DNA of 64,000 nt, from NCBI RefSeq assembly GCF_000166355.1, contig NC_014652.1:712001-776000 (forward strand), read 5' to 3'. This stretch comes from Caldicellulosiruptor hydrothermalis 108. Its GTDB lineage: Bacteria; Bacillota; Thermoanaerobacteria; Caldicellulosiruptorales; Caldicellulosiruptoraceae. The position numbers and the translations under genes were made by a program. Below, one piece after another: positions 3,503 through 43,563 of this stretch. Under the pieces are notes generated by a model. It was given only the letters and a program-made list of their open reading frames with translations, searched no databases and had not been told where the DNA came from. Each line of letters opens with the position of its first letter. Positions within the stretch are counted from its first letter, which is position 1.

Positions 3503-4588
3503 ATGAGAAAATCTAAAAAACTGGTAAGTATTGTTTTGGTTTGTGTTTTGGTGTTGTCTTTAGTATTGGTTTCCATTCCGTTTGTTAATAAGATTGATAC
3601 TTTTGGTGCAAAATCTTTTGCAGCTCAAAAATCTACAAGGAAAGCATCTGCAGGTAAAAAGAGAATAGCAATTATTGTAAAAAATGCTGGTAACCCTTAT
3701 AATGAAAAAGAAGCAGAAGGGTTTTCTAAAGCTTTAAAAGAATTAGGTGATACTGTTATTGTTCAAGCACCAGCTCAACCTACAGCCGAGGCTCAAATTC
3801 AAATAATTCAACAATTAATTGCTCAGAGAGTTGACTGCATAGCAATTGCAGCTAATGATCCAGATGCATTGCAACCAGCTTTACAAAAGGCTATGAAAAG
3901 CGGTATTAAAGTTTTATCATTGGATTCAGCTGTAAATCCAAAAAGTAGAATGGTCCATGTAAACCAAGCTGATCCAGAGTTGATTGGAAGAACATTAATC
4001 CAAGCTATGTACCAAATGATAGGTGGGAAGGGTGAATTTGCAATTTTAAGTGCTACATCTCAAGCTACAAATCAAAACACATGGATTAAGTGGATGAAAG
4101 AAGAGTTAAAGAATCCAAAATATAAAAATATGAAATTAGTGAAAATAGCTTATGGTGATGATTTGAGAGACAAGAGCGTTTCTGAAACAGAAGGGTTGCT
4201 TAAATCGTTCCCAAATCTGAAAGGGATAATTGCTCCTACAACCGTTGGAATGGCAGCAGCAGGTAAAGTATTAACTGATAAAGGATTAAAGGGTAAAGTA
4301 AAATTAACAGGGTTAGGTCTTCCAAGTGAAATGGCTGAATATATCAAAAATGGTGTGTGCCCATGGATGTATTTATGGAATCCTATAGATTTGGGTTATT
4401 TAGCGGGATATGTTGCTGACGCTTTAGCAAGAGGAAAAATCACTGGCAAGTTAGGAGAAAAACTTAAAGCAGGTAGATTAGGTGAAAAACAAGTTGTGAA
4501 AGCTCTTGATGGTGGTACAGAAATTCGTCTTGGAGCACCTTTTAAGTTTGATAAGAGCAATATAGATTACTGGGCAAAAGTATATTAA
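3503..4588 (+). CDS. Sugar ABC transporter substrate-binding protein (Peripla_BP_4/RbsB type)
   Basis: Exported binding protein of about 361 residues. It has a basic N-terminus (MRKSKK), a hydrophobic signal segment and then the periplasmic-binding fold (KRIAIIVKNAGNPYNEKEAEGF, CIAIAANDPDAL, LSLDSAVN). The ATG at 3503 is preferred because the AAGGAGG ribosome binding site at 3487-3493 is well spaced from it, while the TTG at 3494 directly abuts that site. No lipobox cysteine is evident. Stem-loops flank the gene on both sides. The substrate is not readable from sequence; the RhaM-type mutarotase downstream suggests L-rhamnose or a similar sugar. Confidence 0.92.
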   Translation: MRKSKKLVSIVLVCVLVLSLVLVSIPFVNKIDTFGAKSFAAQKSTRKASAGKKRIAIIVKNAGNPYNEKEAEGFSKALKELGDTVIVQAPAQPTAEAQIQIIQQLIAQRVDCIAIAANDPDALQPALQKAMKSGIKVLSLDSAVNPKSRMVHVNQADPELIGRTLIQAMYQMIGGKGEFAILSATSQATNQNTWIKWMKEELKNPKYKNMKLVKIAYGDDLRDKSVSETEGLLKSFPNLKGIIAPTTVGMAAAGKVLTDKGLKGKVKLTGLGLPSEMAEYIKNGVCPWMYLWNPIDLGYLAGYVADALARGKITGKLGEKLKAGRLGEKQVVKALDGGTEIRLGAPFKFDKSNIDYWAKVY

Positions 4589-41478: not shown

Positions 41479-41491
41479 AAGATATATGGTG

Positions 41492-41514
41492 GCCGCCCTC
41501 ATGAAGAGGGTGGC
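41492..41514 (+). terminator. Hairpin after transketolase genes
   Basis: GCCGCCCTC pairs with GAGGGTGGC (9 bp, one G-U, 5-nt loop). The T-run is poor. Confidence 0.55.
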
Positions 41515-41873
41515 TTGCATAATTATTATCGTACGCTTCTTTAGAAAAAAAGGCATAATATAGCATTTTAATGTTTGATTAACATAAGTTGAGTCAAATC
41601 AACAAGGAAATAAGTCATTTCTGTTTTGTATGTAATGAGGATAGGGAACGTAGAATAAAGAATTCTCTTTTTTAACCTGGGGTTTCATATTGAGAGCCAC
41701 ATAGGAAAGTGGTTATGTATTTTTTAAGCTGGCTTCTTGGCCATGGCGTCTTTATATTGTGTTATGATCTTTTTTATTTTTAAGCATGGAAATTAATTGA
41801 GAGATGGTCCTGGGGACAGACAGAAAGTTTAAACTTTCTGATTACCCGTAAAAAAAGATTAATCATTCTATTC

Positions 41874-41963
41874 AAGGTAAGTATAAACACTTTGGCTGAT
41901 AGAGGTTAGCTCACTTCAAAAAGCTGATTTCTCCTATCACTCGCAAGGTTATTTACTTACCTT
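41874..41963 (+). ncRNA. Three-tier structured segment before an IS110 remnant, possible bridge RNA
   Basis: Nested complements: outer AAGGTAAGTA/TACTTACCTT (41874-41883 with 41954-41963), middle TGATAG/CTATCA (41897-41902 with 41934-41939), inner TTAGCT/AGCTGA (41906-41911 with 41922-41927) around a 10-nt loop. The three helices stack on one axis with internal loops. It lies 80 bp upstream of the decayed IS110 recombinase, where IS110-group elements encode a bridge RNA. Inference only; an unrelated structured RNA or chance is possible. Confidence 0.4.
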
Positions 41964-42044
41964 CAAGCGGAATGGAACTTCCTTGCCTAAATTAATTGTG
42001 AAATCTTTGATTTAAAACAACATATGAAGAAGAACTTACTACAA

Positions 42045-43218
42045 ATGACAGAAAGGCCTATTGCAGGTATTTGTGTTGCTTGACTTTAAGCGAAATTGCT
42101 ATTATTTTACTTTCTTATAAAATAGTTGCTCGATTGCAAACAAAACTCTTCAGATTTAAAGAAAGCTACTGACATGCTTAAAAAAGTAGGAAAGAATTTT
42201 GCAGCTGCCCATGTAGTTGTTATGGAATCAACAGGGCATTACCCCAAAATCCTCTTTCACTACTTCACTAAAATCGGATTGGAAATGCTTATCTTAAATC
42301 CCCTCCAATCTGATTCTATTAAAAATATCTCAATAAGAAAAGTAAAAAATCACAAAATTGATGCTTTTAGAATTGTTATACTTTACAAATTAAATCAATC
42401 AAACATAATTATCTTGCCTCTTGAGACTATTGAATCTGGGATTTGTTCAAAAACTGCTTTAGTTGTGTTAGGAAAATATCCTGCACTAGAAGATATTCTC
42501 AATGCGGACAGAAATGAATTAATATCTGTGATTCAGCAAAATTCTCATTAAAGCTATCTGTGGGTTTGTGAAAAGTACGAGCTGCTATATAAGAAAGCTC
42601 AGGAGTTTAGAGAAATTTCTATTTCCGATTTAGCAAACATAACCATGCTAAAAATTTACATAGATACTATAAGAACCTTGGAGAAAAGCATCCAACGAAT
42701 AATTGAAGCTATTGAAGAAATAATTAAGGAGAGTTCGCAAACAGGAGAATCTATTCTTTCGACAATAGAACTTTTACAAACAATTCCTGGTGTAGGATTT
42801 ATCTCAGCAGTGACCATTTTGGCTGAGGTAGGAGACTTCAAGAAGTTTTCAAAACCGAACAAATTAGTTGCATATTTTGGTGTAGACCCCTCGGTAGTTC
42901 AAGCAGGGCAATTTGTTGGTACGAAGAACAAAATGTCAAAAAGAGGTTCAGAAATATTGCGAAGAGTATTGTTCTGCGTAGCTTTTGCTAATTATTAGGA
43001 CTAAGAGAAATAACCAGCCCTGTAATCCTGTGCTATATGAGTATTATCAGAGAAAGTGCCAACAAAAGCCCAAAAGAGTCGCTTTAGGTGCTGTTATGAG
43101 GAAGATAGTGTGTATTATCTTTGCTGTAGTGAGAGACAATAAACCTTTTGAATTCAGAACACCTGAAGAACATATTCAAAAGTATTTTAGTAAAGCAGCA
43201 GTTGTGAACTGTAAATAA
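42045..43218 (+). pseudogene. IS110-family recombinase, decayed
   Basis: The reading from ATG 42045 begins ERPIAGICVA, where functional relatives have GIDVA, so the first catalytic Asp of the RuvC-like DEDD domain is Cys. In-frame stops follow at about 42081, 42087 and 42120. The frame then continues (SSDLKKATDMLKK, VVVMESTGHY, NISIRKVKNHKIDAF), has a TAA at 42549, resumes with the transposase-20 domain (TIPGVGFISAVTILAEVG, KNKMSKRGSEILRRVL) and shifts frame near 42990 for the C-terminus (RTKRNNQPCNPVLYEYYQRK, FEFRTPEEH). Nonfunctional. Confidence 0.9.
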
Positions 43219-43430
43219 GCAATTGTTTTATTGAAAGTACATTGGTTAACCATAATACTTAGAAGCCTCCATTTATTATGTTAACTGAAGATGGATGGTT
43301 TAGCTTTTTTGCGCCTTTTTAGAAAATTAATGAAAAAAATTTATTCAAAATTTTTTTAAAAACCTCTTGACTTTAATTAGCTGGTCTCTCTTCTTTTTAT
43401 AGCCTTCTGCTCTTCAGTATTTTCGTACAT

Positions 43431-43464
43431 CTTTTCGCTATGGTAAATATCTTTACACCTATTC
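43431..43464 (+). repeat. Dispersed 33-nt repeat, copy 2
   Basis: Similar to 5175-5207, ending in the identical TTTACACCTATTC. Between 43219 and this repeat there is only AT-rich sequence with no other feature seen. Confidence 0.5.
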
Positions 43465-43563
43465 GAATGAATTGTAAAAAAGACGGCTTTTTTGTTTTTG
43501 TGCATTTGTGATAAAATAAAATTATATTAAAGCTTAAGACAGTATTTTGGTGGTGGTGAGATA

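What the first reader, a model, noticed from the sequence alone, without database searches (positions are those of the whole stretch)
41874..41963. Candidate bridge RNA fossil upstream of a dead IS110 recombinase
Three nested stems form an almost continuous 90-nt hairpin, 80 bp before the recombinase start, in a 560-bp non-coding stretch. IS110-group elements encode a structured bridge RNA there that guides target choice through internal loops. The internal loops here (41884-41896/41940-41953 and 41903-41905/41928-41933) would be the guide candidates.
Basis: inference. Interest (0 to 1): 0.55.

Follow-up and report, generated by a model that had tools for sequence, protein, structure and literature searches.

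The report
Guide RNA of a broken transposon
The hairpin is half of a "bridge RNA", the guide that tells an IS110 jumping gene which two DNA ends to join; here it survives beside a broken recombinase gene, while working copies of the same system sit elsewhere in the genome.

Summary
The hairpin is real (z = -5.0) and is the donor-binding loop (DBL) of an IS110-group bridge RNA. A covariance model built from 14 relatives without the window finds exactly this place in the 64 kb, E = 2.7e-16. RDG and element end change together: CTTG ends with CAAG guides in 20 of 20 elements, CTAG ends with CTAG guides in 9 of 10. Target guides match their own insertion sites far better than nearby decoys in most copies, but not in the window copy. 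The window recombinase is dead; five intact copies lie in the same genome; 11 of 11 congeneric genomes have the site empty. It is a new member of a known kind (IS621-like). By-product: in one sister genus the target guide reads like the 16S anti-Shine-Dalgarno, and 8 of 10 insertions sit just upstream of a start codon.

The parts
41491..41515 (+). Left half of the target site: terminator-like hairpin downstream of transketolase, ending in the core CT (41514-41515)
   Evidence: Hairpin ending at the core, -19.1 kcal/mol, 5 T in the 8 bases that follow beyond the element; locus without the element in 11 of 11 congeneric genomes
41516..43387 (+). Complete IS110-group element, 1872 bp including the right core CT
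   Evidence: Ends fixed by comparison with 19 related insertions
41516..41523 (+). Left tip TGCATAAT: right donor sequence (with core: CTTGCAT) and -10 box of the circle-junction promoter
41797..41865 (+). [quoted passage not shown]
   Evidence: Alignment with 18 relatives; apical hairpin 41821-41840, 0 of 300 shuffles as good
41803..41811 (+). Left target guide position (GATGGTCCT); does not fit the window's own target
41849..41857 (+). Right target guide position (TAAAAAAAG)
41866..41976 (+). [quoted passage not shown]
   Evidence: Model R1 built without the window: 78.7 bits, E = 2.7e-16, only match in the window
41894..41901 (+). Left donor guide GGCTGATA; fits the right end AGCTGGTC with one wobble and two mismatches
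   Evidence: register by analogy with IS621
41939..41947 (+). Right donor guide ACTCGCAAG; GCAAG pairs fully with CTTGC at the left tip
   Evidence: IS621 register from PMC11208158 passages
42045..43216 (+). Dead IS110 recombinase pseudogene
   Evidence: tblastn with the intact copy: early stops, D10 to C, D106 to H, about 38 codons missing, late frameshift; Pfam PF01548 and PF02371
43367..43387 (+). Right end TTGACTTTAATTAGCTGGT plus core CT: -35 box and left donor sequence

Best explanation
41866-41976 is the donor-binding loop of an IS110-group bridge RNA, encoded with its target-binding loop (about 41797-41865) in the left non-coding end of a complete but dead IS110 element (41516-43387). 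In a live copy the excised circle would join right end to left end, making a TTGACT-17-TATAAT promoter; the RNA would bind the recombinase, its donor loop would pair with the element's own ends (LDG with AGCTGGT-C, RDG with CTTGTAT), its target loop with a chromosomal site, and the recombinase would exchange strands at the CT core. Shown here: the fold, its conservation, guide-end covariation, guide-target matching in relatives, the ends, the empty site, the dead gene. Inferred from IS621: transcription, binding and catalysis. In the window copy the recombinase cannot act and the target guide no longer fits its own site, so any movement would need the recombinase of the five intact copies.
For: Model built without the window finds it, E = 2.7e-16, sole match in 64 kb. 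26 pairs, 94.3% of cells paired over 14 relatives, covariation score above 500 of 500 shuffles, slid controls 32-50% paired. Donor covariation: CTTG with CAAG 20 of 20, CTAG with CTAG 9 of 10; the CTAG tip predicted for L080 from its RDG (note) was then found. LTG plus RTG score beats every CT decoy within 400 bp at 15 of 30 insertions, median decoy fraction 0.005. Junction promoter TTGACT-17-CATAAT in the window. Recombinase related to the solved IS621 (8wt6, E = 9.7e-18) and ISCro4 (9t56, 7.9e-20) proteins. The RDG register, and the G opposite T12, match IS621 as described in PMC11208158 (passages).
Against: No expression data. Rfam has no match, which only says that no curated family covers it. 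The window's own LTG and RTG fit its target no better than decoys (54 of 89 CT decoys as good), and its LDG has two mismatches to its own end. In three genus elements (two in G009, one in G010) the LDG has changed although the right end has not. Of 16 more distant recombinase loci from the phylum search, nine gave no R1 match at E <= 1. The 'further pair types' measure did not exceed its shuffles.
Confidence: 0.95

Rival explanations
1. The hairpin is an ordinary cis element of the recombinase mRNA (a leader hairpin or attenuator), not a guide.
For: It lies 68 bases before the start codon, on the coding strand.
Against: The loop letters track the element's ends across 30 insertions and the neighbouring loop tracks the target sites; a leader hairpin predicts neither.
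Confidence: 0.03
2. The window RNA or ends are still in use: the dead element is served in trans by the recombinase of the five intact copies.
For: The DBL is the best-kept part (79% against 57% for the first part of the left end); both ends are intact, and the window's C12 makes a full G-C pair with the RDG where the intact copies have G-T.
Against: The LDG has two mismatches, the target guide does not fit the site, no sigma-70-like promoter was found inside the window left end, and the recombinases are only about 49-58% identical. The preservation may be inherited from the time the element was alive.
Confidence: 0.1
3. Chance hairpin in AT-rich non-coding DNA.
For: The left end is AT-rich and long.
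Against: z = -4.98; sole model match in the window at E = 2.7e-16; conserved in relatives.
Confidence: 0.005

Closest known systems
IS621 bridge RNA and recombinase (IS110 group, E. coli)
   Same: RNA in the left end; TBL then DBL; CT core; junction promoter; donor right CTTGTAT; RDG ending GCAAG with G opposite T12; related recombinase
   Different: Left end is about 430-530 bp, so TBL starts some 250 bp inside the element; the intact copies also have an internal promoter-like site TTGCCA-16-TATAAT; C-rich targets instead of REP; recombinase about 100 residues longer (430 against 328 in 8wt6)
seekRNA of ISEc21 (IS110) and ISEc11 (IS1111)
   Same: Guide RNA from a non-coding region selects the target (PMC11187229, start of abstract and four passages)
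   Different: Not compared at sequence level here; IS1111 members have the long non-coding stretch in the right end (PMC11208160 passage)
IS900 (IS110 family, Mycobacterium)
   Same: Reported to target translation initiation signals (title of Doran 1997 in the reference list of PMC8141618)
   Different: The paper itself was not read, so the insertion point relative to the Shine-Dalgarno was not compared; no guide-RNA link in the passages seen

Membership tests
IS110-group bridge RNA | Encoded in the left non-coding end, upstream of a DEDD/Tnp recombinase | tested here: met
   intact copies have PF01548 at E = 6.8e-31
IS110-group bridge RNA | Two stem-loops with internal loops and conserved structure | tested here: met
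   DBL. TBL apical hairpin: at most 11 of 300 shuffles as good in 15 of 16 distinct sequences scored, G10 the exception (90 of 300); the L080 sequence was not caught by the pattern
IS110-group bridge RNA | RDG pairs with the element's left tip | tested here: met
   29 of 30 elements, window included
IS110-group bridge RNA | LDG pairs with the element's right end | tested here: inconclusive
   Fits in most relatives; window two mismatches; altered in G009 and G010 elements. The right end hardly varies, so no covariation, and other stretches scored as well in the blind scan
IS110-group bridge RNA | LTG and RTG match the insertion site | tested here: inconclusive
   Met for relatives as a set; not met for the window copy (54 of 89 decoys as good)
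IS110-group bridge RNA | Core dinucleotide CT at both ends | tested here: met
IS110-group bridge RNA | Promoter formed at the right-left junction of the circle | tested here: met
   TTGACT-17-CATAAT by sequence; activity not testable
IS110-group bridge RNA | RNA is transcribed, binds the recombinase and is required for recombination | not testable with these tools
   Needs experiment
Active IS110 element | Intact DEDD catalytic residues and open frame | tested here: not met
   D10 to C, D106 to H, stops, deletion, frameshift

The most novel reading that the evidence does not exclude
In this clade the bridge RNA's left target guide has come to copy the 16S rRNA anti-Shine-Dalgarno sequence (CACCTCCT, recalled), so that an RNA-guided transposon aims at the ribosome-binding site of any gene and lands just upstream of it. 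In genus g6, 8 of 10 insertions (7 of 9 independent sites) lie 13-14 bases before a start codon of a frame of at least 60 codons, against 86 of 1870 CT decoys; a G351 copy from another family does the same. In the window's genus the guide drifted to CCCCCCT-like forms and the enrichment is weaker (5 of 18 against 163 of 3207 decoys).
Probability: 0.5. Interest if true: 0.6.

Novelty: new member of a known kind. Interest (0 to 1): 0.38.

Why it matters
It shows that a bridge RNA can be spotted from sequence alone next to a dead recombinase, and adds a clade with intact copies, natural donor-guide switches (CAAG to CTAG together with the element end) and many natural target-guide variants. These are ready-made tests of the pairing rules. 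If the anti-Shine-Dalgarno reading holds, it would suggest an RNA-level cause for the older report that an IS110-family element targets translation starts.

Tried and rejected
Rfam at gathering and relaxed thresholds: nothing relevant. Blind scan for the best guide position over the left end: found LTG and, inside the non-coding part, RTG; for the donor guides the AT-rich background gave equal or better scores elsewhere, so the donor claim rests on the between-clade switch instead. Idea that all targets are intrinsic terminators: rejected; a clear hairpin ending at the core was computed at 3 of 30 sites (window, L071, L075); by eye L064 and L065 also look palindromic, but the test did not score them. 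Idea that solo left ends are small mobile elements carrying their own RNA: no right end found near L142 or L143. The genome-contig scan gave only three loci from two peptide patterns. RNAalifold on A2 paired the LDG with the apical stem, so the structure for A3 was set by hand from single-sequence folds; the counts therefore lean towards it. Own copies in L018 and L021 were dropped from the guide and site tests because their left tip is altered. The internal-promoter match was one of 2 found against 1.0 expected, so it is only suggestive.

Full report
WHAT IS THERE. The hairpin exists and is far more stable than shuffled sequence (z = -4.98, 0 of 200 shuffles). It extends outward to 41867-41976. 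The frames downstream carry the two IS110 domains, PF01548 and PF02371. The same genome has five intact copies (430-residue recombinase from the ATG) about 70% identical at the DNA level, and the genus search found matches in 12 of 12 genomes, some of them only fragments.

ELEMENT ENDS. Comparing 19 related insertions fixes the ends: target...CT | TGTATAATTATT ... TTGACTTTAATTAGCTGGT CT | target. In the window the left core is 41514-41515 and the right core 43386-43387, so the element is 1872 bp. Joined right to left, the ends make TTGACT-17-CATAAT, the kind of junction promoter described for IS110 circles (PMC11208160: passages, and section 7 whole).

THE RNA. The hairpin's structure, set by hand from single-sequence folds, has 94.3% of cells paired in 14 relatives, 14 cells with changes on both sides, and a covariation score above all 500 shuffles; slid versions pair 32-50%. 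One measure, further pair types, did not exceed its shuffles. A model from those 14, without the window, finds the window hairpin at 78.7 bits, E = 2.7e-16, and nothing else in 64 kb. Over 37 genomes of the class it finds 41 matches in 17 genomes; 36 of the 41 lie beside an IS110 gene or remnant, and all 16 genomes with a strong recombinase match have the RNA. Further out it fades: of 16 recombinase loci from a 398-genome phylum search that were given to the model, four match at E <= 1e-5, three weakly, nine not at all.

DONOR GUIDES. In IS621 the RDG is A157-U158, two flipped bases, G161 opposite T12, then C162-G165, on the right donor side (PMC11208158 passages). Here the RDG is ACTTGCAAG in the intact copies and ACTCGCAAG in the window (41939-41947), and the left tip with core is CTTGTAT or, in the window, CTTGCAT. 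In the sister genus g6, in L080 and in G351 the RDG reads GCTAG and the tip reads CTAG. Over 30 insertions: CTTG with CAAG 20 of 20; CTAG with CTAG 9 of 10; the remaining one is L091 with CTAA. The CTAG tip of L080 was predicted from its RDG before it was looked at (note, result). The LDG (GGCTGGTT, window GGCTGATA at 41894-41901) fits AGCTGGTC, but the right end hardly varies, so this is a match, not covariation; in the G009 and G010 elements the LDG has changed.

TARGET GUIDES. For 30 insertions with clean ends (L018 and L021 left out, altered tips) I scored LTG and RTG against the true site and against every CT within 400 bp on both strands. The sum beat every decoy at 15 of 30; median decoy fraction 0.005 for LTG and for the sum, 0.25 for RTG alone. 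The clear failures include the window (54 of 89 decoys as good), L069, L068, L072 and L103. So the window's target half is either decayed or changed since insertion.

THE WINDOW COPY. Its recombinase has D10 to C, early stops, about 38 codons missing, D106 to H and a late frameshift. Against the intact copy, codon positions differ by 35, 21 and 56%, the mark of selection for most of its history, so it probably died late (inference). The DBL is the most conserved section: 79% identity, against 57% for the first part of the left end, 60% TBL, 67% gene, 75% right end. The element sits at a terminator-like hairpin after the transketolase gene; the same locus has no element in 11 of 11 other genomes of the genus.

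A BY-PRODUCT. In g6 the LTG is mostly TCACCTCCT, ATTCCTCCT or CCACCCCCT, and the reverse complement of most sites reads AGGAGG or close to it with a start codon 13-14 bases in: 8 of 10 insertions have a frame of at least 60 codons there, against 86 of 1870 CT decoys; L097 and L104 share one site, so 7 of 9. In the window's genus it is 5 of 18 against 163 of 3207, and some of those frames are doubtful, the window's among them. The decoys were all CT dinucleotides, not C-rich ones, so this shows where insertions lie, not that the Shine-Dalgarno is preferred over equal C-rich sites. IS900 was reported to target translation initiation signals (title only, in the reference list of PMC8141618). Searches pairing IS110 or bridge RNA with Shine-Dalgarno or translation initiation gave listings in which I recognised no paper that links the two; PMC11208160 and PMC11187229 do not contain a word beginning 'Shine'. 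The library is partial, so this is no proof of absence.

VERDICT. It is the donor half of an IS621-like bridge RNA in a dead element of a clade with intact members: a new member of a known kind.

Noticed in passing
window 43391-43479: Dispersed repeat right beside the element's right end, with six further partial copies in the same genome at 78-93% identity.
   Followed up: no
L078 (G003), L032, L033, L040: A 175-bp right-end remnant about 93% identical to the window element (42858-42978 plus 43334-43387) in several congeneric genomes; no intact close copy of the window sublineage was found in 12 genomes.
   Followed up: partly
L142 (G001) and L143 (G002): Left end with complete bridge RNA but no recombinase or right end nearby; the break points differ. 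In L142 a 498-codon frame spans the stretch beyond the break, perhaps another insertion.
   Followed up: partly
L018 and L021 (own genome): Two intact copies share the same 40-bp left flank but have different right flanks, and have lost the TG at the left tip.
   Followed up: no
L060 (G007) and L076 (G011): Truncated copies, nearer to the window (75%) than to the intact copies (72%), that keep only the last part of the donor-binding loop.
   Followed up: no
L146 (G032) 4187-4253: A second, partial donor-loop match 1.3 kb from the first, without a recombinase of its own.
   Followed up: no
L171, L182, L186, L172-L175: More distant relatives end in TAGCTGGTTT rather than TAGCTGGTCT, perhaps a TT core, and mostly lack an R1 match.
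   Followed up: no
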